NCBI GenBank assembly: GCA_902806205.1
Contig: CADCVR010000090.1
Coordinates: forward strand, 1 to 46,083
Origin: an uncultured Solirubrobacteraceae bacterium
Lineage (GTDB): Bacteria > Actinomycetota > Thermoleophilia > Solirubrobacterales > Solirubrobacteraceae
Direction: 5' to 3'
Length of the DNA: 46,083 nucleotides
Below are positions 1 to 39,155 of the stretch, piece by piece. Positions within the stretch are counted from its first letter, which is position 1. Each line of letters starts with the position of its first letter. The position numbers and the translations under genes are program-made. Under the pieces are notes generated by a model, which saw only the letters and a list, made by a program, of their open reading frames with translations, was not told the DNA's origin and made no database searches.

Positions 1-120
1 TGGCTGACGCCGCACGATTTCCGCAGCCGATCCTGTACGGATCGGCAAGGGATCGGGTGGCGTCTGGTGCCAGCCGAAACGTCGAGCGGGCGGCACCGGA
101 TCCGTGGAATCACTCATCTA
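1..120. repeat. Dispersed inverted-repeat element, family B, copy 1 (cut by window edge)
   Basis: This stretch is about 85-88% identical by eye to the reverse complement of 38988-39109. Its inner end (about 103-120) matches the terminal repeat TAGATGAGTNRTTCCACG of the complete copy at 38988-39155. It contains a hairpin with 8-bp arms GCCGATCC/GGATCGGC at 26-33 and 39-46. The arms are identical in both copies although loop and flanks differ, which suggests selection on the stem. The final TAG (minus strand, 118-120) is also the stop codon of the neighbouring gene. The other end of this copy lies outside the window. Confidence 0.75.
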
Positions 121-9135: not shown

Positions 9136-9456
9136 TCAGGCCAACGCGGGTTCGAGCTGCGCTTCGAGCTTCTTCTTCGGGTAGGCGCCGATGATCTTCG
9201 CGGCGGGCTGCCCGGCCTTGAACAGGATCATCGTCGGCAGGGAGAGGATCTGGAACTGCGCGGCGGTGTGCTGGTTCTCGTCCACGTTGAGCTTGACCAC
9301 GCGCAGGCCGCGCTCCTCGGAGATCTGCTCGAGCACCGGGGAGACGGCACGGCACGGGCCGCACCACGGCGCCCAGAAGTCGACGAGGACGGGCTCGAGG
9401 CTCTCGACCACCTCGGCCTTAAAGCTCGCGTCGGTGACGTCGGTGACGTCGGCCAT
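9136..9456 (-). CDS. trxA: Thioredoxin (second of a tandem pair)
   Basis: This 106-residue single-domain thioredoxin has the classic FWAPWCGPC active site (Cys32, Cys35), the NVDENQ segment and cis-Pro74 in SLPT. It reduces disulfides of cytoplasmic proteins with electrons from thioredoxin reductase, which is not in this window. It starts 3 nt after the stop of the upstream thioredoxin, so the two are almost certainly co-transcribed and translationally coupled. The paralogues share roughly 70% of residues. The C-terminal PKKKLEAQLEPALA is complete. Confidence 0.95.
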   Translation of the reverse strand: MADVTDVTDASFKAEVVESLEPVLVDFWAPWCGPCRAVSPVLEQISEERGLRVVKLNVDENQHTAAQFQILSLPTMILFKAGQPAAKIIGAYPKKKLEAQLEPALA

Positions 9457-9459
9457 CGC

Positions 9460-9783
9460 TCAGATCACCGGCTCGATCTCGCTGACGAGCTTCTTCTTGG
9501 GGAAGGCACCCACGATCTGCTTGGCGGGCTGACCCGCCTTGAAGACGATCATCGTCGGGATCGACATGACGCCGAACTGCGCGGCGGTCCGCTGGTTGTC
9601 GTCGACGTTGAGCTTGACGATGCGCAGGTCGTCACGCTCGGCGGCGATCTCCTCCAGGACCGGGCCCACCACGCGGCACGGGCCGCACCACGGCGCCCAG
9701 AAGTCGACGAGGACCGGCTTGTCGGACTCGATGACCTCGGCCTGGAAGTTGGCGTCTGTGACGTCGGTGACGGCGATGCCCAT
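9460..9783 (-). CDS. trxA: Thioredoxin (first of a tandem pair)
   Basis: A 107-residue thioredoxin with FWAPWCGPC (Cys33, Cys36), NVDDNQ and the cis-Pro segment SIPT. I start at 9783 (MGIAVTDV) because a ribosome site AAGGAG lies 7-8 nt upstream. The longer ORF start at 9816 would translate the leader and operator-like palindrome. It is the leading gene of the pair, with the palindrome at 9811-9830 just upstream, so it is probably under a specific regulator. Tandem duplication is evident from the near-identical N-termini (TDVTDA). Confidence 0.95.
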
Positions 9784-14224: not shown

Positions 14225-14844
14225 CGCGACGCGCGCCGGTAGTGCCCCGGCCACTCCGCGTGGCGGATGCGCGCGATCTCGCGGATCTCCCCGTGGGTCC
14301 CCCACTCGTTCGCGCCGAGCCGAGAGAGCGGCTCGAGCCTGCGCACCTCGGGGCGCCCGTTCTCGAGCACGTCGGTGCTGACGACCGCGTGGACCACCCG
14401 CCCGAAGACCACCGCGGAGTTCCCGAAGGAGAGCGTCGTGTGCAGCTCGCATTCGAGGGCGGCCGGCGAGGCGGCGACCCGCGGCGGCGCGACCTTCTCG
14501 CTCGCCTCCCGCTCGAGGCCCACCGCGTCGAACTCGCTGACGCCGCGCGGGAAATCCGTTGCCGTGGCGTTGACCTCCTCGAAGAGCGCCTCGGGCGTGA
14601 AGCAGACGACGAACTCGCGCGTCGCCTCGACGTTCGCCAGGCTGTCCTTGCGCCCGACGGAGGTGAACTGCACGACGGGTGGCGAGACGCACGCGACGGT
14701 GAAGAAGGAGTGCGGCGCGAGGTTGTCGACGCCGTCGGCCGAGCGTGTCGAGACCCAGGCGATCGGCCGGGGGACGATGACCGAGTTCAACAACCGGTAG
14801 AACGCGTGGGGCTCGATCTCGGCGGGGTCGTAGTGGGTGCGCAC
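14221..14844 (-). CDS. Flavin reductase-like FMN-binding protein (DIM6/NTAB type)
   Basis: A 207-residue protein with the FMN-binding split-barrel fold. Visible landmarks are FYRLLNSVIVPRPIAWVSTRS, NLAPHSFFTVACVSPPVV, KDSLANVEATREFVV and a HTTLSFGNSAVVFGRVVH core. Members reduce or bind FMN and often serve two-component monooxygenases. I prefer the GTG at 14844 to the TTG at 14853 because a -10-like TAGCTT lies 7 nt upstream of the GTG, the usual leaderless geometry in this window. The TAG of that hexamer comes from the end of the inverted-repeat element at 14855-15024. It is coupled by a 4-bp overlap to the downstream glycosyltransferase. Confidence 0.85.
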   Translation of the reverse strand: MRTHYDPAEIEPHAFYRLLNSVIVPRPIAWVSTRSADGVDNLAPHSFFTVACVSPPVVQFTSVGRKDSLANVEATREFVVCFTPEALFEEVNATATDFPRGVSEFDAVGLEREASEKVAPPRVAASPAALECELHTTLSFGNSAVVFGRVVHAVVSTDVLENGRPEVRRLEPLSRLGANEWGTHGEIREIARIRHAEWPGHYRRASR

Positions 14845-14854
14845 CCGCCCCAAG

Positions 14855-15024
14855 CTAGGAGTCTGTTGAAATATTCGCGCGCCCGCTCAAAACCACCTCG
14901 CGCGCACCATCCGCCACACGACGACTCGCAGATCCAACCAGGATCTGCCACGTCATCGCGCGACGCCTGGCACGGGCGACGCGGCTCTGAGCGACCACAC
15001 GGCGATACATCAACAGACTCCTAG
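14855..15024. mobile_element. 170-bp MITE-like element (family A), CTAG-bounded
   Basis: Perfect 15-bp terminal inverted repeats CTAGGAGTCTGTTGA (14855-14869 and 15010-15024) enclose 140 bp with no coding potential. The repeats continue imperfectly for about 10 more bases inward. If CTAG is the duplicated target, the element ends are GAGTCTGTTGA and the 4-bp CTAG duplication resembles IS5-type insertion. No transposase is in the window, so it would be mobilised in trans. A decayed relative lies at 9044-9112. Confidence 0.75.
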
Positions 15025-28564: not shown

Positions 28565-28592
28565 TGGGGGAGACAGGATTTGAACCTGCGAC
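28565..28592 (-). tRNA. tRNA 3' fragment (T arm and acceptor strand only)
   Basis: On the minus strand there is a complete T stem-loop GCAGG-TTCAAAT-CCTGT (28573-28589) followed by an acceptor 3' strand CTCCCCC and discriminator A (28565-28572). No matching 5' acceptor strand GGGGGAG, D arm or anticodon arm is found upstream. This is the pattern left by integrative elements that use a tRNA 3' end as att site. The amino acid cannot be told. Confidence 0.6.
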
Positions 28593-28599
28593 CGCCCGG

Positions 28600-28786
28600 C
28601 CCCCAGGGAACACATGGCAATCAGGACGTTTCTGTAAGCGTTCAGTGGCCTGCTGGTTGATTAGGTCAGTAGGGGCGCTGGGTCGCCGCGGGCGTGGGCG
28701 GTGGGCAGGTCGATGAGGTAGACGTGCAGGCGGCGGTGTCGCAGGCTGCAGCTGTAGCGCGCGGCCTTGTCGGCGTAGCGCAGGAT
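28600..28786. other. Intergenic region beside the tRNA fragment
   Basis: About 190 bp between the tRNA fragment and the pseudogene end, with no supported gene. It is a place to look for remnants of an integrated element. Confidence 0.35.
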
Positions 28787-29393: not shown

Positions 29394-30029
29394 ATGGCCA
29401 CGAACGACACGACCAGGACCACCAAGCCCGCCGCCAAGAGCACGGCGGCCAAGAGCACCCGCAAGCCGGCCCGCAAGCCCGCCGCTCGCAAGACCGCCGC
29501 CAAGTCGGCCACGGCGAAGCGCACCACGACGCGGACCACGGCCCGCAAGACCCCCGCGAGCCGCAAGCCCGCGGACGCCAAGACGGCGACCGCGCGCCGG
29601 TCGGCCAACCGGCAGACGAGCGCCGCCGTGCGTGAGGCCCGGTCGGCCGCCACGCACGCCGAGAAGGCCGCGGACTCGACCGTCGACGTCGTCACCGTCT
29701 ACGCCGGAAAGGCCGTCCTGATCCCCGTCGGGGCCGCCCTTCTCGTCCGCGACAACCTCACCGCAACGGCCACGGACGTTCGCGACTACGTGCGCAAGAC
29801 GTCGGTCGAGAAGGAGCTCAAGCGCTTCGAGAAGCGCGGCACGACCGCTCGCAGGAGCGTCGAGCGCGAGGTCAAGCGGGCTCGCACGAAGGCCGAGCGC
29901 GAACTGCGCACGCGCCGCCGCGGGGTCGAGCGCCAGGTCGGGGGCGTCGCCTCGCAGACCACCCGCGTCACCTCCTCGGCGCAGAAGGCGGCCACGGGTG
30001 TCGTCGAGCGCGTCGCCGCGCTGGCCTAG
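29394..30029 (+). CDS. Histone H1-like / basic helical protein
   Basis: A 211-residue protein with two parts. Residues 1-75 are Lys/Ala/Thr-rich with PAAKS, KPARKPA and RKTAA units like bacterial histone-H1 tails and HBHA tails. Residues 85-211 form a long helical, phasin-like or apolipoprotein-like segment (AVREARSAATHAEKAADS, then a hydrophobic stretch VTVYAGKAVLIPVGAALLV, then charged heptads). It may compact DNA or bind membranes or polyanions; I cannot decide. A ribosome site GAGGAG precedes the ATG. Its last ~45 bp are duplicated exactly at 37216-37260. Confidence 0.75.
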   Translation: MATNDTTRTTKPAAKSTAAKSTRKPARKPAARKTAAKSATAKRTTTRTTARKTPASRKPADAKTATARRSANRQTSAAVREARSAATHAEKAADSTVDVVTVYAGKAVLIPVGAALLVRDNLTATATDVRDYVRKTSVEKELKRFEKRGTTARRSVEREVKRARTKAERELRTRRRGVERQVGGVASQTTRVTSSAQKAATGVVERVAALA

Positions 30030-30054
30030 CCCGCGGCACAGAGCAGCAACAGGA

Positions 30055-30081
30055 CCCGGCCCGCTGCTCGAGCGGGCCGGG
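30055..30081 (+). terminator. Strong hairpin after the histone-like gene
   Basis: Perfect 11-bp arms CCCGGCCCGCT/AGCGGGCCGGG with a 5-nt loop, 25 bp past the stop codon. There is no U-tract, as is common for terminators in high-GC actinobacteria. Confidence 0.65.
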
Positions 30082-30164
30082 GTCGGTCCTGCCACCAACA
30101 GGCCGCGGCGCCACGCTGTCGGCCGCGTCCGCCACGCCGACGGATGACTCGTCTGCCCGATGAA

Positions 30165-30214
30165 CCGTATTCGCGCCGGGTACGGAGCCGAGATGTCGAT
30201 CATGAGGCTACGAT
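30165..30214 (+). promoter_or_regulatory. Candidate promoter/operator of the ebo operon
   Basis: TACGAT (30209-30214) is the best -10-like hexamer before the operon. Just upstream is an inverted repeat CCGTA-N11-TACGG (30165-30169, 30181-30185) with the one-helical-turn-plus spacing of a dimer operator. A convincing -35 is not seen. Confidence 0.3.
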
Positions 30215-30261
30215 CCTTCGCCGCACCCGCCCGCCCGGCCAGGCTCTGGGTGGCGAGCCCC

Positions 30262-30279
30262 ATGAAATCGACGCTATGA
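30262..30279 (+). CDS. Possible five-codon leader ORF before eboD
   Basis: ATG AAA TCG ACG CTA TGA (MKSTL) ends on a TGA that overlaps the eboD ATG at 30276 by ATGA. eboD has no visible ribosome site, so coupled reinitiation is possible. The upstream ribosome site is also weak, so this is tentative. Confidence 0.2.
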   Translation: MKSTL

Positions 30280-31631
30280 AGAACGATCCTCGTCGTCCCG
30301 GGGCCGCCCACGCGGCCGGCGCGACGAGCCAGAGTGCCGGTGCCCGCCATCTGGACACCCCGCCCACCGCGCGCGAGCTGTTCGAGGTACGTCCGGTACC
30401 CGACGCTTCCGCGGAGGACGTCGCGGCGGTGGTGCCGCCCGACATCGACCAGGAGGTCGTCGTCCGCTTCCGCTACCCGGTGCGCTTCACGCGCCGGATC
30501 CTGGATCCGGCCAACCACACCCTGCGCGACGCGGTCGGTCCGGCGGTGCCCGCCAGGGTGCTGGTCGTCATCGACCAGGGCGTGACCGACGCACATCCGA
30601 CGATGGTCGACGACGTCTTCGCGTACTGCGCGGCGCACGCCGACGCGCTGGAGCTCGCCGCCGAGCCGCTCGTCGTCGGCGGTGGCGAGGCCATCAAGAA
30701 CGATCACGGTGCCATCGACGAGGTGCGGGCCGCCATCGATACCCACGCCATCGATCGCCACTCCTACGTGGTCGCCGTCGGGGGCGGGGCCGTGCTCGAC
30801 GCCGTGGGCTACGCGGCGGCGACCGCGCACCGGGGCGTGCGCCTCATCCGCGTGCCCAGCACCGTCCTGGCGCAGGACGACTCTGCCGTCGGAGTCAAGA
30901 ACGCGATCAACGGGTTCGGCAAGAAGAACTTCATCGGCACCTTCGCGCCGCCCCACGCCGTGCTGAACGACCTCGATCTGCTGACGACGCTCTCGGACCG
31001 CGACTGGCGGTCGGGGATCTCTGAAGCCGTCAAGGTCGCGCTGCTCAAGGACGCCGCGTTCTTCGCGTGGATCGAGGCCAACGCGACGCAGCTGCGGGAG
31101 CGCTCGGCGGACGCCATGGCTCGGCTCGTGCACCGCAGCGCCGAACTGCACCTGATCCATATCGCGGCGAGCGGCGACCCGTTCGAGTTGGGCTCGGCAC
31201 GGCCGCTGGACTTCGGCCATTGGGCCGCGCACAAGCTCGAGCGGCTCACCCGTCACGATCTGCGCCACGGCGAGGCCGTGGCCATCGGCGTCGCGCTGGA
31301 CTGCACCTACGCCGGGCTGACCGGGCGCCTGGACGAGCTCGGCCTCCGCCGGGCCATCGCTGCGCTCGAGGCTGTCGGCCTGCCGGTCTGGCATCCCGCG
31401 CTCGACGCGGCGGGGAACAGCGGCCGCCCGGCGATACTCGACGGGCTGGAGGAGTTCCGCGAGCACCTGGGCGGAGAGCTGACCATCACGCTCATCGACG
31501 GGGTCGGATCGGGCGTGGAGGTCCACGAGATCGACGAGGACCTGATGCTCGAGGCCTCGGCCCGCCTGCGCCGGCACACCGAACAGGGAAGGGGACCCGC
31601 ATGGAGCCGCACGCAAGCGCGAGCCCGCTGA
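30276..31631 (+). CDS. eboD: EboD-like 3-dehydroquinate synthase homologue
   Basis: A 451-residue protein of the dehydroquinate-synthase fold. NAD-binding and catalytic landmarks are VVGGGEAIKN, VAVGGGAVLDAVGYAAATA, RVPSTVLAQDDSAVGVKNAIN, SGISEAVKVALLKD and RHDLRHGEAVAIGVALD, which carry the Lys, Glu and His positions of the fold. Length and the N-terminal RFRYPVRFTRRILDPAN segment match EboD of ebo clusters rather than housekeeping AroB, and the downstream gene set confirms this. The reaction is unknown; it may cyclise a C7 sugar phosphate. The first ~50 residues are poorly conserved, so a later start is possible. It overlaps the next gene by 31 bp. Confidence 0.85.
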   Translation: MKNDPRRPGAAHAAGATSQSAGARHLDTPPTARELFEVRPVPDASAEDVAAVVPPDIDQEVVVRFRYPVRFTRRILDPANHTLRDAVGPAVPARVLVVIDQGVTDAHPTMVDDVFAYCAAHADALELAAEPLVVGGGEAIKNDHGAIDEVRAAIDTHAIDRHSYVVAVGGGAVLDAVGYAAATAHRGVRLIRVPSTVLAQDDSAVGVKNAINGFGKKNFIGTFAPPHAVLNDLDLLTTLSDRDWRSGISEAVKVALLKDAAFFAWIEANATQLRERSADAMARLVHRSAELHLIHIAASGDPFELGSARPLDFGHWAAHKLERLTRHDLRHGEAVAIGVALDCTYAGLTGRLDELGLRRAIAALEAVGLPVWHPALDAAGNSGRPAILDGLEEFREHLGGELTITLIDGVGSGVEVHEIDEDLMLEASARLRRHTEQGRGPAWSRTQARAR

Positions 31632-31903
31632 GCCAAAGCGAGTTCGTCGATCGGTACTTCATGGAGCACCGGGTGCAGGTGCTGGAGCTGGCCGCGTTCC
31701 TGGACCGGCTTGACCGGGCCCGGGAGCTCGACGCCGAGGACGACTTCCGCCTGCGCTCACTCCGTGAGGCGCTGGCGATCCTGGTCGACGGCGGCGGCAC
31801 GCGCGTCCAGCGCGTGCAGATGACCTTCAGCGACCGTGACACGACCCCGCTGCCCTCGCTGGACCGCCAGAGCGCACGGGGCGCCTACGACCCGGAGCGA
31901 TGA
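31601..31903 (+). CDS. Small helical protein in the ebo operon (unknown)
   Basis: A 100-residue protein that begins inside the 3' end of eboD (31-bp overlap) and ends in an ATGA overlap with the TatD gene. It is predicted helical and charged: [24 protein letters not shown], then [16 protein letters not shown], then a polar C-terminal tail. The usual EboA protein is about twice as long, and I see no EboA signature. It may replace EboA in this lineage or be a new subunit. Tight overlap on both sides suggests stoichiometric co-translation with the ebo enzymes. Confidence 0.7.
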
Positions 31904-32736
31904 CCATGGAGTACCTGGACCTGCATGCGCACATGGTGTCGCGCACGACCGACGACTACCGTGCCATGGCCCTGACGGGCTGCGTCGCGGTCACCGAGCC
32001 GGCGTTCTGGGCCGGCTACGACCGTCCCGGGGTCGAGGCGTTCGTCGACTACTTCAACCGGCTCGTGGACTTCGAGCCCCAGCGTGCGGCCCAGTACGGC
32101 ATCGCGCACTTCACGTGGATGTGCCTCAACCCCAAGGAGGCCGAGGACCGCGAGCTGACGCGGCGGGTCCTCGACGTCATCCCGTCCTACCTCGAGCGCC
32201 CCAACGTGCTCGGCATCGGGGAGATCGGCCTCAACCGGGTGACGCGCAACGAGCTGGCGGGCTTCAAGGACCACGTCGACCTGGCCATGGAGCATGACCA
32301 GCTCATCCACGTCCACACGCCCCACCTCGAGGACAAGTGGAAGGGCACGAAGGTCATCGTCGACACCCTCGCCGCGGACCAGCGCATCACCCCGCGCCGG
32401 GTGATGGTCGATCACGCCGAGGAGCACACCGTCGAGATGATCCTCGCCGACGGCTTCTGGGCGGGGCTGACCCTCTACCCCGTCACGAAGGTCGGCCCGT
32501 CGCGCGCGATCGACATCATCGAGATCCACGGGCCCGAGCGCATCTGCGTGGCCTCGGCGTGCGACTGGGGCGAGAGCCGCCCGACCGCCATCCCGGAGTT
32601 CGTGCTCGAGATGCGCCGCCGCGGCCATCCCGATTCACTCATTCGCAAGGTCGTCTACGACAACCCGATCGAGCTCCTCTCCCAGTCGCCGAAGTTCGGG
32701 CTGCCCGACCGCGAGGCAAGCGTGGCCTGGGGATGA
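31900..32736 (+). CDS. eboB: TatD-family metal-dependent hydrolase (EboB-like)
   Basis: A 278-residue TIM-barrel hydrolase of the amidohydrolase/TatD type. Metal-site landmarks are [10 protein letters not shown] (HxH), [27 protein letters not shown] and [10 protein letters not shown]. Position between EboD and EboE identifies it as the EboB-type member. Natural substrate is unknown. It starts by a 4-bp overlap with the small gene before and ends by a 4-bp overlap with eboE. Confidence 0.88.
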
Positions 32737-33869
32737 GGGTCGGCGGCGACGGCCTGCACCTGACGTACTGCACGAGCATCCACCCCGCCAGCGGTTGGCC
32801 GGCGGTGGAGGAGAGCCTGCGGGCTCACGCGCCGGCGCTGAAGGCGCGCCTGTCTCCCGACGCCCCGTTCGGCCTGGGGCTGCGCCTGTCGGGCGCCGAG
32901 AGCTCAGAGCTGCTCGAGGGCGACCGTCTCGCGCGGTTCCGGGCGTGGCTCGACGACCAGGGTCTGTACGTCTTCACCCTCAACGGCTTCCCGCACGGCA
33001 CGTTCCACGGGCAACCGGTCAAGGTCGACGTCCACGCCCCTGACTGGCGCTCCGAGGAGCGCGTCCGCTACACGTCGCGGCTCGCGGAGATCCTCGCGGT
33101 CCTGCTGCCCGACGGGCAGTCCGGGACGATCTCCACCAGCCCGCTCTCCTATCGCCCCTGGATCGGTGACGACGCCGACGGCCTGGCGACCGCCACGGCG
33201 AACGTCCGCCGGGTGGCCGCCGCGCTGAGCGAGCTGTGCGCCGAGCGGGGCGTCCACATCGCCCTGGCCATCGAGCCGGAGGCCGATGGGCTCCTCGCCG
33301 ACTGCCAGGAGCTCATCCGGTGGTGGCCCGAGGATCTGGACCGCGAACACGTCACGGCGTGCTTCGACGTATGCCACGCGTCCGTCGCCTACGAGAACCC
33401 CGCCGAGACCCTGCGCGCGCTGGCCGACGCCGGCATCGCCGTCGGGAAGGTCCAGTTGAGCGCGGCCATCCGTGTCGCGCTCGGTGATGCGGAGCACCGC
33501 CGACGGGTCGGTGAGCGCCTGGGCGAATTCGCCGACCCCGTCTACCTGCACCAGGTGACCTGCCGTGATCGCGACGGGACGCTCGTGGGCTTCCCTGACC
33601 TCCCCGAGGGCCTGCACGCCGTCAGCGAGCCCACGGCGGAGGAGGTCCGCGTCCACTTCCACGTCCCGATCTTCCTCGAGGGCTACGGGGAGCTGGGCTG
33701 CACCCAGGGTGACCTGCGGGAGACGATCGCGCTCGTGCGCGACGGCTCGGTGTCGTCGCACCTGGAGATCGAGACGTACACGTGGGACGTGCTTCCCGAC
33801 GAGCTCAAGGCCTCGCCGGTGGACTCCATCGCGCGTGAGTACGCGTGGGTGCTGGATGCTCTCGGCTGA
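32733..33869 (+). CDS. eboE: Metabolite traffic protein EboE (TIM barrel)
   Basis: A 378-residue xylose-isomerase-like TIM barrel. The N-terminal [17 protein letters not shown] is the hallmark of EboE, followed by [47 protein letters not shown] and the C-terminal [13 protein letters not shown]. These Glu/Asp/His positions could bind a metal, but no reaction is known for the family. In Nostoc the ebo genes are needed for a scytonemin precursor to reach the periplasm. The start overlaps eboB by ATGA. Confidence 0.92.
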
Positions 33870-34737
33870 GGTCGCCTCGCCGCGCCGGACGGGTCGGGCC
33901 GCCTGGCGGGCCTGGCTCGCGCTCGCGCGCATCTCCAACGCCCCCACCGTCGTCTCCAACGCGATCGCGGGCGCGGCGCTCGCCGGCGGGAGCGGCGCGA
34001 TCGGGACCATCGCGCCGGTGGCCGTGGCGATGGTGCTCTTCTACACCGCCGGAATGGTCTGCAACGACGTGTTGGACGTCGACGTCGACCGGCGCGAGCG
34101 CCCGGAGCGCCCGCTGCCGTCCGGACAGATCTCGATCCGAGCGGCCGTCGCCGCGACCGTGGGCCTGTTCGCGATCGGCGAGGCGCTGCTGCTGGCGATC
34201 AGCGCCGGCGCCGCGCTGGCGGGCCTGGTCCTCATCGCCGCAATAGTCCTCTACGACGCCTGGCACAAGGGCAACGTGCTGTCGCCGGTGCTGATGGGCG
34301 CCTGCCGGGCGCTCGTCTACGTCGTCGCCGCCCTGGCCGTCGCCGACGAGGTTCGCGGCGTCGTCTGGGGCGCCGCCGGCCTCGTGCTGCTCTTCGTCGT
34401 CGGGCTGACGGAGGTCGCGAAGGCCAGGGAGCGGAGCCTCGGTTCGCTCTGGCCCGTCGTGGCGGTCCTGGCGCCCGCGGCGGTCTGGGCCCGGGAGGTC
34501 CGCTCGGCCGCCGTCGCGCTGCTCAGCCTCGCTTTCGTCGCGGCGACCGTCCACGCCCTGTGGCTGGCGCTCGCCCGGCGCGCCACCGGGCCGGCGGTCG
34601 GGCACCTCATCGCCACCGTCGCGCTGCTGGACGCCCTGGCGATCGCCGCCGTGGGCGGCAGCACGGCGGCCATCGTGACCTGCCTGGCGGCGTTCGCGGC
34701 CACACTTGCCCTCCAGACCAGGATCGCCGGAACCTGA
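33856..34737 (+). CDS. eboC: UbiA-like prenyltransferase EboC
   Basis: A 293-residue integral membrane protein with about eight to nine helices. The first prenyl-diphosphate-binding motif is NDVLDVDVDRRERPERPLPSG, the classical NDxxDxxxD form. The second aspartate motif is reduced to YDAWHKG, as often in EboC. It should bind a polyprenyl or other diphosphate at the membrane. The ATG at 33856 overlaps the eboE 3' end by 14 bp. The presence of an IPP isomerase two genes later fits an isoprenoid substrate. Confidence 0.9.
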   Translation: MLSAEVASPRRTGRAAWRAWLALARISNAPTVVSNAIAGAALAGGSGAIGTIAPVAVAMVLFYTAGMVCNDVLDVDVDRRERPERPLPSGQISIRAAVAATVGLFAIGEALLLAISAGAALAGLVLIAAIVLYDAWHKGNVLSPVLMGACRALVYVVAALAVADEVRGVVWGAAGLVLLFVVGLTEVAKARERSLGSLWPVVAVLAPAAVWAREVRSAAVALLSLAFVAATVHALWLALARRATGPAVGHLIATVALLDALAIAAVGGSTAAIVTCLAAFAATLALQTRIAGT

Positions 34738-34738
34738 G

Positions 34739-36124
34739 ATGCGCAAGACCGTCGTCCTGTGCGCCGTCGGGTTGACCCCCGACCTCGTGGGGGACAGCAC
34801 CCCACGGCTGAAGGCCTTCGCCGGTACGGGAGCGATGGTGCCGCTGGGCGGGGTCACGCCGGCCGTGACCGCCACGGTGCAGAGCACCTACCTCACCGGC
34901 AAGCTCCCGCGCGAACACGGCGCGGTGGGCAACGGCTGGCTGTTCCGCGACACCATGGAGGTGCGGCTGTGGCAGCAGTCCAACCGACTCGTCCAAGCGC
35001 CGAAGATCTGGGATACGGTCCCCGGCCTCACCGTGGCGAACCTGTGCTGGTGGTTCGCCATGTACGCAGGGGCCGACGTGACCGTCACGCCCCGCCCGAT
35101 GTACCCCGCCGACGGACGCAAGATCCCCGACTGCTACACCAAGCCCGGCGACCTGCGCGACAGCCTGCAGGGTGAACTCGGTCAGTTCCCGCTGTTCAAG
35201 TTCTGGGGGCCGGCAGCGTCGATCGACTCGACGCGCTGGATCGCCGGGGCCGCCAAGAGCGTCGAGGGTCGCTTCGGGCCCGACCTCACGCTGGTGTACC
35301 TCCCCCACCTCGACTACGGCCTGCAGAAGAAGGGCCCGGCCGAGCGCGACGTGCGCACGGAGCTCGGGGAGCTGGACGCCGTCGCCGGCGACCTGATCGA
35401 CTTCTACGAGGAACGCGGGGCGCGCGTGATCGTCCTCTCGGAGTACGGCATCGTTCCGGTCTCGCGCCCGGTCCATCCCAACCGCGTGCTTCGCGCAGCA
35501 GGGCTCATCAGCTACCGGATGGAGCTGGGCCGCGAGGTGCTCGACATCGGCGGCAGCGAGGCCTTCGCGATGGCCGATCACCAGCTGGCGCACGTCTATG
35601 TCCGCGACAGCCGCCGCGTCGACGAGGTCAAGGCGCTGCTCGCAGGGTCGCCGGGAGTCCGCGACGTCCTCGACGAGGAGGGCAAGCGCGACCATGGGCT
35701 CGACCACGACCGCGCGGGAGAGCTGGTGCTCATCGCAGAGCCCGACTCCTGGTTCACCTACTACTACTGGGAGGACGACGATCGCGCGCCCGACTACGCA
35801 CGGACGGTGGACATCCACCGCAAGCCCGGCTATGACCCCGTCGAGCTGTTCCTCGACCCCGCCATCCGGATCCCGCCGCTGGCGCTCGGCTCGCGTCTGG
35901 TCCGCAAGAAGCTCGGCTTCCGCACGCTCATGGACGTCATCCCCCTTGACGCCTCGCTGGTGAAGGGCTCTCACGGGCGCATCCCGGCCGACCCGGCCAA
36001 GGGACCGTTGCTCATGACCCGTCAGGCCGAGCTCCTCGGCGACGGCGACGTCGCGGCGACCGACGTCCATGACGTCATCCTCAGCCACCTCGGACTCCCG
36101 GCCCCCCGCGCGATGTCACGATGA
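34739..36124 (+). CDS. eboF: Alkaline-phosphatase-fold protein EboF
   Basis: A 461-residue protein of the nucleotide pyrophosphatase/phosphodiesterase branch of the alkaline phosphatase superfamily. The nucleophile region is PAVTATVQSTYLTG (Thr), metal ligands sit in YLPHLDYGLQKKG (Asp, and His in the PHLD context), LSEYGIVPV and MADHQLAHVYV (Asp-His). There is no signal peptide, so it is cytoplasmic or membrane-associated. Position and size match EboF. It begins 1 nt after the eboC stop and overlaps the isomerase gene by ATGA. Confidence 0.88.
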   Translation: MRKTVVLCAVGLTPDLVGDSTPRLKAFAGTGAMVPLGGVTPAVTATVQSTYLTGKLPREHGAVGNGWLFRDTMEVRLWQQSNRLVQAPKIWDTVPGLTVANLCWWFAMYAGADVTVTPRPMYPADGRKIPDCYTKPGDLRDSLQGELGQFPLFKFWGPAASIDSTRWIAGAAKSVEGRFGPDLTLVYLPHLDYGLQKKGPAERDVRTELGELDAVAGDLIDFYEERGARVIVLSEYGIVPVSRPVHPNRVLRAAGLISYRMELGREVLDIGGSEAFAMADHQLAHVYVRDSRRVDEVKALLAGSPGVRDVLDEEGKRDHGLDHDRAGELVLIAEPDSWFTYYYWEDDDRAPDYARTVDIHRKPGYDPVELFLDPAIRIPPLALGSRLVRKKLGFRTLMDVIPLDASLVKGSHGRIPADPAKGPLLMTRQAELLGDGDVAATDVHDVILSHLGLPAPRAMSR

Positions 36125-37161
36125 CCGTGGTCACGCGCAAGGCCGATCATCTGCGCGCCGCCGCCGGCGCGGATGTCGGCCATGACGGCGGCAACGGCCT
36201 CGAGGGCCTTCGGCTGAGCCACCGGGCACTTCCCGAGCGCGACCTGGCCGACGTCACGCTGGAGACCGACCTGCTCGGCGCGCGGCTCGGCGCGCCGCTG
36301 CTCGTCTCGGCCATGACGGGGGGCACGCCGGCGGCCGAGGTGCTCAACGCCCGCCTCGCACGCGCGGCGACCGAGCACCGGCTCGGGCTCGTGCTCGGCT
36401 CCGGGCGCGCGTTGCTCGAGGACCGCGAGCAGCTGCGCACGTACCGCAGCGACGACCGGCCGCCCCTGTTGCTGGCGAACCTCGGAGCCGCCCAGATCCG
36501 CGGCCCGCACGCCGACCGCGCCGAACGGCTTGTCGAGCTCCTGGACGCCGATGGCCTCACGATCCATCTCAACGCGATCCAGGAGGCGGTCCAGCCCGAG
36601 GGTGAGCCGGAGTTCGCCGGCGTCGTCGACGCGATCGCCGCGATCGTGGCCCGGCTGGCTCCGCTGCCCGTGGTGGTGAAGGAGGTCGGCTTCGGGATGG
36701 ACCCCGAGGATGTGACCTTGCTGGCTCAGGCGGGCGTCGCGGCCGTCGACGTGGCCGGCGCAGGAGGGACGAACTGGGCGCTGGTCGAGGGGCGCCGGGA
36801 TCACCGCGTGCAGCCGCTCGCGGCGGCCTTCGCCGCTTGGGGCGTGCCGACCGCCGAGGCGCTGCAAGGCGCCATCGCCGCCGCCCCCGGCCTGCCGATC
36901 ATCGCCAGCGGCGGTCTCCGCGACGGGGTCGACGTGGCCAAGACGCTTGCGCTCGGAGCCTGCGCCTCCGGGCTGGCGCGGACCTTCCTGCTCGCCGCGC
37001 AGGCCGACGACGCCTCGGAGACGGCGGCGGTCCTGATCTGCCAGTTGCGGGTGGCCGTGTGGGCGAGCGGTGCCGCGAGCGCATCCCGGCTCGATCGGTC
37101 GCACCTGCGCGAGCGTGCTCGCCCGAGGGACTACCTGCCTCGGCTGGGCGGGCCGGAATGA
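36121..37161 (+). CDS. fni: Type-2 isopentenyl-diphosphate isomerase (FMN-dependent)
   Basis: A 346-residue (beta/alpha)8 flavoenzyme interconverting IPP and DMAPP. Landmarks are TRKADHLRAA (N-terminal R-K-x-DH substrate motif), LVSAMTGGTP (FMN), LLANLGAAQ, HLNAIQEAVQPEGE, VVKEVGFGM and IASGGLRDG. The length is normal. It overlaps eboF by 4 bp, so it is part of the ebo operon here. This gene is not part of the standard ebo set and suggests the pathway consumes DMAPP or IPP, plausibly through EboC. Its stop is followed by the mosaic sequence at 37189-37260. Confidence 0.92.
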   Translation: MTVVTRKADHLRAAAGADVGHDGGNGLEGLRLSHRALPERDLADVTLETDLLGARLGAPLLVSAMTGGTPAAEVLNARLARAATEHRLGLVLGSGRALLEDREQLRTYRSDDRPPLLLANLGAAQIRGPHADRAERLVELLDADGLTIHLNAIQEAVQPEGEPEFAGVVDAIAAIVARLAPLPVVVKEVGFGMDPEDVTLLAQAGVAAVDVAGAGGTNWALVEGRRDHRVQPLAAAFAAWGVPTAEALQGAIAAAPGLPIIASGGLRDGVDVAKTLALGACASGLARTFLLAAQADDASETAAVLICQLRVAVWASGAASASRLDRSHLRERARPRDYLPRLGGPE

Positions 37162-37188
37162 GAACGCTCGCGCCTGGGTGAAGTCGGG

Positions 37189-37260
37189 ATGGTCCGCTCG
37201 ATCGAGGTGCGCGACACCCGCGTCACCTCCTCGGCGCAGAAGGCGGCCACGGGTGTCGTC
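37189..37260 (+). repeat. In-frame mosaic of mrp and histone-like gene fragments
   Basis: Positions 37189-37215 equal 37881-37907 (mrp codons 28-36) base for base over 27 bp. The following 37216-37260 equal 29961-30005 (end of the histone-like gene) over 45 bp. The junction keeps both original reading frames, giving MVRSIEVRD joined to TRVTSSAQKAATGVV. The open frame continues antisense through the lipoprotein gene to 37767. The two donors lie 0.7 kb and 7 kb away. Confidence 0.85.
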
Positions 37261-37269
37261 CGGGGGGCT

Positions 37270-37731
37270 TCAGCCCGCGCCGCAGACCTTCAGGCCGATG
37301 GCCCGGATCTTCGCGCGGGACTGCTCGGTCACCTTCACGAGCTCCGTCCCGATCTGCTGCAGCTTGACGCTGTCCTTGTCCTTGGCCGCCCGGATCACCT
37401 CGTCGAACCGCTCGAGCAGGCCCTCCTGCAGCTCGTAGGCGTCGTCTGCGGTCTCGGCGATCTCCCCCGGCGCCTTCAGCGCCCGCAGCTCCTCGAGCTG
37501 CTGCTCGGCCAGCCGGCGCCGCGTCGCGGTGATCCGCTCGAGCTCGGCCACCGATCCGGCGTCGCCGACGTCGCCGAGCTCGCGCCCACGGGCGGCGGTC
37601 CGGGCGCAGATGGCGTCGGCCTGCTTGACGTACTCGGCGCGGCTGAGCGGTTCCTCCCCGCCGCATCCGGCGAGGGTCGCCAGCACCGTCAAGGACAGCG
37701 GCACGGTGAGCAGCGGGAAACGGCGCGGCAT
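37270..37731 (-). CDS. Small lipoprotein of unknown function
   Basis: A 153-residue protein with a lipoprotein signal (MPRRFPLLTVPLSLTVLA, lipobox LAGC, Cys 23). The mature part is all-helical: SRAEYVKQADAIC near the start, then Arg/Glu-rich helices, and a final Cys in LKVCGAG that may pair with the Cys of ADAIC. The Y-x-x-x-AD-x-IC pattern is frequent in actinobacterial lipoproteins of unknown role. A similar layout is found in the protein at 41069-41617. It is divergent from mrp. Confidence 0.78.
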   Translation of the reverse strand: MPRRFPLLTVPLSLTVLATLAGCGGEEPLSRAEYVKQADAICARTAARGRELGDVGDAGSVAELERITATRRRLAEQQLEELRALKAPGEIAETADDAYELQEGLLERFDEVIRAAKDKDSVKLQQIGTELVKVTEQSRAKIRAIGLKVCGAG

Positions 37732-37787
37732 GACGGCCTCTCGTCGGAATGTGTCAAGAGCGCGTGAGCCGACCGCGCCAGGCTTGC

Positions 37788-37799: not shown

Positions 37800-38981
37800 A
37801 TGCCGTCGAACGAGCAGATCCTCTCCGCCCTCGAGGCCGTCGTCGACCCCGAGATCCGCCGGAACGTCGTGGAGCTCGGCATGGTCCGCTCGATCGAGGT
37901 GCGCGACGGCGCCACCGTGGACGTGATGATCTCGCTGACGACTTCGGGTTGCCCGATCCGGGACCACTTCGTCAGCGCGGTCACCGAGGCGGTCTCCAAG
38001 CTCGCCGGCGTGACCCGGGTCAACGTCAGCTTCGACGTGCTCACCCCGCAGGAGAAGCAGAAGCTCCAGCAGCGGCTCGGGGGCACGGCGCTGCCCGACG
38101 GCACGCTCGCGGCCGTCACGAACGTCATCTGCGTCGGCTCGGGCAAGGGCGGCGTGGGCAAGTCGACGCTCACCGCGAACCTCGCGGCCGCACTGGCCGG
38201 CGAGGGCAAGCGCGTCGGCATCCTCGACGCCGACGTCTGGGGCTACTCCATCCCGCGCATGTACGGGCTGGGAGCGACGCGCCCCCCCGTCTCGTCGGAG
38301 CGCAAGATCCTTCCCCTGGAGGCCTTCGGGGTGAAGGTCATGTCGATCGGCTTCTTCGTCGAGGAGGACGCCGCCGTCGTGTGGCGGGGTCCCATGCTCC
38401 ACAAGGCACTCACCCAGTTCCTGCAGGACGTGGCGTGGGGCGAGCTCGACTACCTGCTCGTCGACCTGCCGCCGGGCACGGGCGACGTCTCCATGACGCT
38501 CTCCCAGATGCTGCCCCACGCGAAGTTCGTCATCGTCACCACGCCGCAGGACACGGCGCAGAGGGTCGCGCGCCGCGCCGCCGAGATGGCCCACAAGGTC
38601 AACCTCGAGGTCATCGGGATCATCGAGAACATGGCCGGCTTCACGACGCCGTCCGGGGAGCGCTTCGCGATCTTCGGCGAGGGCGGCGGTGCCGCGCTGG
38701 CCGAGGAGCTCGACGTGCCGCTGCTCGGCAAGGTGCCGATCACGATGCCGCTGCGCGCCCAGTCCGACGGGGGCGAGCCCCTCGTCTTCGAGGACCCCGA
38801 CGACCCCGCCGCCCAGGCGATCCGCCACGCCGCCCGCGGGCTCGTGGCGCTCACGCCGAGCGCGCTGCCGATGCTGCAGTCCGTCGTGCCCGAGCCGCCG
38901 GCGCTGCAGGTCATCAAGCCGTCGGGCATGTCGCTGCCGATGAGCGACGCGTCGCGCGCGGACGGCGGCGCGGCCGCGTAG
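37800..38981 (+). CDS. mrp: Mrp/NBP35-family P-loop ATPase
   Basis: A 393-residue protein. The N-terminal DUF59/MIP18 domain spans residues 1-80 (EAVVDPEIRRNVVELGMV, TTSGCPIRD). The deviant Walker A GKGGVGKST is at 115-123, then LDADVWGYSIPRM and LLVDLPPGTGDVSMTL. Mrp/ApbC proteins carry and transfer Fe-S clusters. The usual CxxC after IIENMA is absent here (MAGFTTPSGERFAIFGEGG), as in some actinobacterial Mrp proteins, so cluster binding by that motif is not expected. Codons 28-36 are duplicated at 37189-37215. The stop TAG is followed after 6 nt by the repeat element at 38988. Confidence 0.93.
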   Translation: MPSNEQILSALEAVVDPEIRRNVVELGMVRSIEVRDGATVDVMISLTTSGCPIRDHFVSAVTEAVSKLAGVTRVNVSFDVLTPQEKQKLQQRLGGTALPDGTLAAVTNVICVGSGKGGVGKSTLTANLAAALAGEGKRVGILDADVWGYSIPRMYGLGATRPPVSSERKILPLEAFGVKVMSIGFFVEEDAAVVWRGPMLHKALTQFLQDVAWGELDYLLVDLPPGTGDVSMTLSQMLPHAKFVIVTTPQDTAQRVARRAAEMAHKVNLEVIGIIENMAGFTTPSGERFAIFGEGGGAALAEELDVPLLGKVPITMPLRAQSDGGEPLVFEDPDDPAAQAIRHAARGLVALTPSALPMLQSVVPEPPALQVIKPSGMSLPMSDASRADGGAAA

Positions 38982-38987
38982 CCTGCC

Positions 38988-39155
38988 TAGATGAGTCGTT
39001 CCACGGATTCGCTGCCGCCGAGCGACGTCCCGGCTGGCACCTGACACCACCCGATCCCTTGCCGATCCCGACAGGATCGGCTGCGGAATCGTGCGGCGTC
39101 AGCCATCCACCCGGACCGCCGATCGACGGGAGCGCCTCGTGGAACAACTCATCTA
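38988..39155. mobile_element. 168-bp inverted-repeat element, family B, complete copy
   Basis: Terminal repeats TAGATGAGTYGTTCCACG (17 of 18 match) at 38988-39005 and 39138-39155 face inward. The right terminal TAG is the stop codon of carbonic anhydrase; the left one lies 6 nt past the mrp stop. A perfect 8-bp stem GCCGATCC/GGATCGGC with 5-nt loop sits at 39061-39081. A second copy with the same stem is at 1-120. No coding sequence inside. Position between convergent genes suggests a bidirectional terminator role. Confidence 0.8.

What the first reader, a model, noticed from the sequence alone, without database searches (positions are those of the whole stretch)
37189..37260. Frame-preserving mosaic of mrp and histone-like gene fragments
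27 bp identical to mrp codons 28-36 are joined, with no extra base, to 45 bp identical to the end of the histone-like gene 7 kb away, and both reading frames continue across the junction. Exact identity argues for a recent event such as template switching, or for an assembly chimera. If real, it makes an ORF that runs antisense through the lipoprotein gene.
Basis: seen in the sequence. Interest (0 to 1): 0.65.

Follow-up and report, generated by a model that had tools for sequence, protein, structure and literature searches.

The report
Patchwork scar beside an acquired cluster
A 72-base patchwork copied from two neighbouring genes marks the right-hand edge of a 7-kb gene cluster that this bacterium acquired recently, so it looks like a repair scar showing how foreign DNA was stitched into the chromosome, not a new gene.

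Summary
In 46 of 53 related loci the histone-like gene sits just upstream of mrp, and in genus-mate RYN_257 the order is hist-lipoprotein-mrp. In the window about 7.1 kb (an ebo-type cluster plus fni) lies between hist and the lipoprotein gene; no other genus member held has the ebo cluster. Joining the two flanks restores the ancestral intergenic sequence with almost nothing lost. The mosaic is therefore extra filler at the right border of an insertion. In the ancestral map its sources lay about 84 bp and 617 bp from the insertion point, in direct orientation. The genome encodes Ku and LigD. Best reading: locally templated filler made when acquired DNA was joined in by end-joining or template switching. 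Comparable 42- and 83-bp local inserts are published for induced breaks in Streptomyces. An earlier tandem duplication is the main rival. Assembly chimera is unlikely. The antisense ORF is expected at 73% GC and shows no sign of coding. Modest interest; new member of a known kind.

The parts
29394..30029 (+). histone-like basic protein gene (211 aa), left neighbour of the insertion; intact
   Evidence: homologue directly upstream of mrp in 46/53 related loci
29960..30005 (+). source of the 46-bp filler piece (codons 190-204 plus one base)
30050..30092 (+). ancestral hairpin between hist and lipoprotein genes; insertion point at its foot (left cut about 30086-30096)
30144..31631 (+). eboD-like sugar-phosphate cyclase (3-dehydroquinate synthase family); true start uncertain
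31607..31903 (+). 98-aa ORF conserved at the same place in the ebo cluster of G022
   Evidence: no family
31900..32736 (+). eboB-like TatD-family hydrolase
32733..33869 (+). eboE (metabolite traffic protein EboE, NF035939, E 9e-128)
33862..34737 (+). eboC-like UbiA prenyltransferase
34742..36124 (+). eboF-like type I phosphodiesterase/nucleotide pyrophosphatase
36121..37161 (+). fni, type 2 isopentenyl-diphosphate isomerase, last gene of the inserted block
37184..37188 (+). five further bases shared with mrp with one mismatch: end of the filler or microhomology with the block's end
37189..37215 (+). filler piece 1: copy of mrp codons 28-36 (37881-37907)
37215..37260 (+). filler piece 2: copy of hist 29960-30005; 1-bp overlap with piece 1
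37261..37269 (+). right flank: resumes the ancestral hist-lipoprotein intergenic sequence (right cut about 37259-37270)
37270..37731 (-). lipoprotein gene, right neighbour of the insertion; intact
37800..38981 (+). mrp (Fe-S cluster carrier ATPase); source of piece 1 at 37881-37907
37189..37767 (+). 192-codon ORF antisense to the lipoprotein gene; judged incidental

Best explanation
The mosaic is filler DNA at the right-hand joint of a recent illegitimate insertion. A block of about 7.1 kb (ebo-type cluster plus fni) was inserted at one point, the foot of the hairpin between the histone-like and lipoprotein genes, with almost no loss of ancestral sequence. At the right joint a DNA end was extended on two local templates before being sealed: 46 nt of the histone-like gene (about 84 bp from the break) and 27-32 nt of mrp (about 617 bp on the other side). 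Shown: both copies, the ancestral gene order, the single insertion point, the patchy presence of ebo, the direct orientation and closeness of both sources, and the presence of Ku and LigD genes. Inferred: that this was one event, that it was end-joining or template switching, and that Ku/LigD did it. The filler has no demonstrated function.
For: Exact copies, unique in the genome. hist-lipoprotein-mrp adjacent in the genus-mate, and hist upstream of mrp in 46/53 related loci. eboF found in 12 of 232 genomes of the order, the window's own included, and in none of the seven other genus members. Same gene order D-small-B-E-C-F in G022. Joining the flanks at 30089/37264 best restores the genus-mate's intergenic sequence, with score peaks at left cuts 30086-30096 and right cuts 37259-37270. 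Chance that two random genome fragments both come from so near the break is about 3e-8. Ku at C49:13185 and LigD at C1:26258. In Streptomyces ambofaciens, scars of induced breaks carried 42- and 83-bp inserts from close to the break, with 1-6 nt microhomologies in half of the scars (PMC5869714).
Against: The mrp|hist joint shows only 1 bp of overlap (chance 0.52). The apparent 6-bp overlap GTCGTC at the hist|right-flank joint depends on an ancestral sequence inferred from one relative and may be shorter. Both pieces keep direct orientation and stand in the order mrp then hist, as a tandem-duplication joint would. No reads or sister strains were available.
Confidence: 0.65

Rival explanations
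1. Tandem-duplication scar: the hist-lipoprotein-mrp segment was first duplicated head to tail, which joined mrp codon 36 to hist codon 190. The ebo block later replaced most of the first repeat, and a further deletion removed the hist tail and hairpin from the second.
For: The mrp-then-hist order and direct orientation of the joint are exactly those of a tandem-duplication junction, and hist and mrp were about 0.7 kb apart in the ancestral map.
Against: Needs three events within the time in which 72 non-coding bases gained no change. Two independent breakpoints (left about 30089, right about 37264) would have to fall at the same ancestral position within about 10 bp. No further remnant of a second lipoprotein or mrp copy is left.
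Confidence: 0.2
2. Two-step origin: the ebo block was inserted cleanly first, and the filler arose in a later break at the right border.
For: Nothing in the sequence dates the two steps separately (bounds only the age of the filler).
Against: After the insertion hist would be 7.2 kb away, which would make its use as a template a coincidence; before the insertion it was about 84 bp away.
Confidence: 0.08
3. Assembly or library chimera.
For: The genome is a 108-contig draft (97% complete) and no reads are at hand.
Against: A false joint would not place the two neighbours of one ancestral locus (hist, lipoprotein-mrp) on opposite sides of the block, nor keep the intergenic sequence complete to within a few bases.
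Confidence: 0.05
4. Functional element: a new fusion or antisense gene, or attachment-site repeats of a mobile element.
For: The 46-bp direct repeats flank the block, and an ORF starts at the first base of the mosaic.
Against: The left copy is followed by the ancestral hist tail and hairpin inside the supposed element; no recombinase gene was recognised in the block; the mrp piece is unexplained; the ORF has P(open) of about 0.85, low GC3 and no family.
Confidence: 0.02

Closest known systems
Local-sequence insertions at NHEJ scars of induced breaks in Streptomyces ambofaciens (PMC5869714)
   Same: Actinomycetota (placement of both groups from general knowledge); tens of bases copied from close to the break; Ku/LigD-type pathway present; the authors propose that NHEJ helps integrate foreign DNA
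   Different: Here a natural event, with two pieces from both sides of the break and a 7-kb block joined in; the pathway itself was not tested
Templated insertions of polymerase-theta-mediated end joining in eukaryotes (PMC12426944)
   Same: Patchwork of several short segments copied from flanking sequence at a joint
   Different: In a bacterium, where a polymerase-theta homologue was not looked for; pieces of 27 and 46 bp exceed the usual <25 bp
Homology-facilitated and double illegitimate recombination in Acinetobacter and relatives (references listed in PMC13344027; PMC3240628)
   Same: Foreign DNA integrated at a non-homologous joint
   Different: There is no known homology arm here, and the filler is local
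ebo cluster (PMC5133447, PMC6282210)
   Same: EboE equivalog plus EboB/C/D/F-like genes in one block; horizontally mobile in known cases
   Different: No recognised eboA; fni appended at the 3' end

Membership tests
Locally templated insertion (filler) at a break-repair joint | Inserted bases match sequence near the break | tested here: met
   Sources about 84 and 617 bp from the insertion point in the ancestral map
Locally templated insertion (filler) at a break-repair joint | Source copies remain intact | tested here: met
   hist and mrp genes complete
Locally templated insertion (filler) at a break-repair joint | Microhomology at the joints | tested here: inconclusive
   1 bp at mrp|hist; 0-6 bp at hist|right flank; the block|mrp joint cannot be tested without the donor
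Bacterial NHEJ | Ku and LigD genes present | tested here: met
Bacterial NHEJ | Joint depends on Ku/LigD | not testable with these tools
   needs mutants
Tandem duplication junction | Second copy of the intervening gene present | tested here: not met
   One lipoprotein copy at the locus; only a remote homologue elsewhere (24% identity)
Integrative element with att repeats | Recombinase gene in the element and native gene end beyond the right repeat | tested here: not met
   Block holds only ebo-type genes, a 98-aa ORF without a family and fni; hist tail missing beyond the right copy
ebo cluster | EboE plus EboB, C, D, F homologues in one block | tested here: met
   NF035939 above cut-off; the others by Pfam family and same order in G022
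ebo cluster | eboA | tested here: not met
   No EboA model hit; a 98-aa ORF without a family sits in the cluster

The most novel reading that the evidence does not exclude
Bacterial end joining can make compound, polymerase-theta-like patchwork: a single DNA end switched between two local templates on opposite sides of a break while a horizontally acquired operon was captured. The scar would be a fossil of natural gene transfer by end joining.
Probability: 0.4. Interest if true: 0.55.

Novelty: new member of a known kind. Interest (0 to 1): 0.38.

Why it matters
It gives a natural, readable example of how a foreign operon entered an actinobacterial chromosome: at a single point, without loss of host sequence, with filler copied from both sides of the break. 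Such scars at operon borders could be searched for systematically, to ask how much horizontal transfer uses end joining rather than homology or integrases, a proposal made from laboratory breaks in Streptomyces (PMC5869714).

Tried and rejected
Exact search for the joint in 84,980 genomes: none found. tRNA and Rfam features in the window: none. Integrative-element reading of the 46-bp repeats: rejected. Coding reading of the antisense ORF: rejected. Transcription-terminator scan of the joint: nothing at the scar. The scar folds into an 11-pair hairpin on the minus strand, but not clearly better than shuffles (13 of 200 as good); a fold-back step in the template switch remains speculation. Similar mosaics elsewhere: only tandem repeats in 694 kb of this genome; in about 1.19 Mb of background loci mostly repeats, with L210 (an acidobacterial record) not followed up. 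The 41-bp repeat at 9350/9674 proved to be two adjacent thioredoxin genes.

Full report
What is there. The 72 bp at 37189-37260 consist of 27 bp identical to 37881-37907 (mrp codons 28-36) followed by 46 bp identical to 29960-30005 (histone-like gene, codons 190-204 plus the base before); the C at 37215 belongs to both. The match to mrp can be stretched to 37184 with one mismatch. Both pieces are unique in the 3.38-Mb, 108-contig genome apart from their source. Chance gives about 2.5e-5 exact 27-bp and 4e-15 exact 46-bp pairs in such a window. No other non-tandem mosaic was found in 694 kb of the same genome.

Where it lies. It sits in the 108-bp space between fni (stop at 37161) and a lipoprotein gene on the other strand (37270-37731), upstream of mrp (37800-38981). 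In the nearest genus-mate held (G005, the same 3,078-bp contig as MAG RYN_257, JAOPZO010000123.1) the order, read in the window's orientation, is hist (+), lipoprotein (-), mrp (+), all adjacent. In G003, G004, G006 and G007 hist and mrp are also neighbours. In 46 of 53 mrp loci of Solirubrobacterales-type records a hist-like gene lies within 3 kb upstream on the same strand. This order is therefore ancestral.

What came in between. In the window 30144-37161 carries a DHQ-synthase-like sugar-phosphate cyclase, a 98-aa ORF, a TatD-like hydrolase, EboE (NF035939, E 9e-128), a UbiA protein best matching EboC (below that model's cut-off), a phosphodiesterase and a type 2 IPP isomerase. This is an ebo-type cluster in the same order as in G022, followed by fni. 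The eboF relative is present in 12 of 232 genomes of the order (the window's own included) and in no other member of the genus. fni exists in genus-mates, but with none of the ebo genes detected around it. In the window GC is 71.2% for ebo and 71-75% around.

One insertion point. If the two flanks are joined in a script and aligned to G005, the best fit is at left cut 30089 and right cut 37264 (peaks 30086-30096 and 37259-37270); the join restores the hairpin foot and the short spacer before the lipoprotein stop with only a few bases uncertain. The hairpin is conserved and stays with hist. So the block entered at one point, and the mosaic is extra DNA between the block and the right flank. In the ancestral map the hist source ended about 84 bp left of that point and the mrp source began about 617 bp right of it, both in direct orientation. 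Two random fragments would fall so close with probability about 3e-8.

Age. The scar is non-coding and yet unchanged over 72 bp (95% upper bound 4.1% divergence). G005's mrp matches the 27-bp piece at only 19/27. The event followed the split from G005.

Mechanism. The simplest reading is one illegitimate insertion in which an end at the right joint was extended on hist and on mrp before sealing. Joint overlaps are 1 bp (mrp|hist) and between 0 and 6 bp (hist|right flank, GTCGTC, depending on the inferred ancestor). The genome has a Ku gene (C49:13185) and a LigD gene whose frame continues from the phosphoesterase domain into further LigD sequence (the ligase and polymerase parts are my reading of the translation, not a separate test). 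In S. ambofaciens, induced breaks left scars with microhomologies of 1-6 nt in half of cases, and inserts of 42 and 83 bp from near the break in two cases; inserts up to 18.8 kb were also seen, and the authors suggest that NHEJ may integrate foreign DNA (PMC5869714). The polymerase domain of bacterial LigD is described as promoting realignment of primer and template (PMC7072297). That Ku/LigD acted here is inference.

Rivals. A head-to-tail duplication of hist-lipoprotein-mrp would give the same mrp|hist joint, but then needs a replacement and a deletion whose breakpoints coincide within about 10 bp of the ancestral map. A later, separate filler event would have to use hist from 7.2 kb away. 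An assembly chimera does not explain why the two sides of one ancestral locus flank the block. The ORF through the lipoprotein gene is in register with its codons, so it stays open with probability about 0.85; its GC3 is 0.77.

Verdict. Observation confirmed; the interpretation of a recent template-switch-like event is partly supported, now with a cause: the capture of an ebo-type cluster. It is a natural member of a known kind of repair scar, of modest interest.

Noticed in passing
window 1-120 and 39031-39113 (inverted): Multi-copy intergenic repeat of roughly 110 bp, also on contigs C5, C40, C70 and C88 and at several contig ends; no Rfam match.
   Followed up: partly
window 14868-15024: A second multi-copy intergenic repeat with a GATCCAACCAGGATC palindrome, also on C1, C5 and C81.
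   Followed up: partly
window 9139-9760: Two adjacent thioredoxin genes share 41 identical bp at the WAPWCGPC active site.
   Followed up: yes
window 28567-28606: 40 bp shared with contig C94, reading like the 3' end of a tRNA-type sequence (GGTTCAAATCCTGTCTCCCC), but ARAGORN finds no tRNA.
   Followed up: no
window 36121-37161: fni is joined to the ebo cluster (ATGA overlap with eboF); in genus-mates it lies elsewhere, and no other strong copy exists in this genome.
   Followed up: partly
window 31607-31903: 98-aa ORF with no family, conserved (66%) at the same place in the ebo cluster of G022.
   Followed up: partly
L210 17813-17859: Two adjacent inverted exact matches (21 and 24 bp) to 14226-14246 and 14569-14592, a possible similar mosaic in an acidobacterial record.
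   Followed up: no
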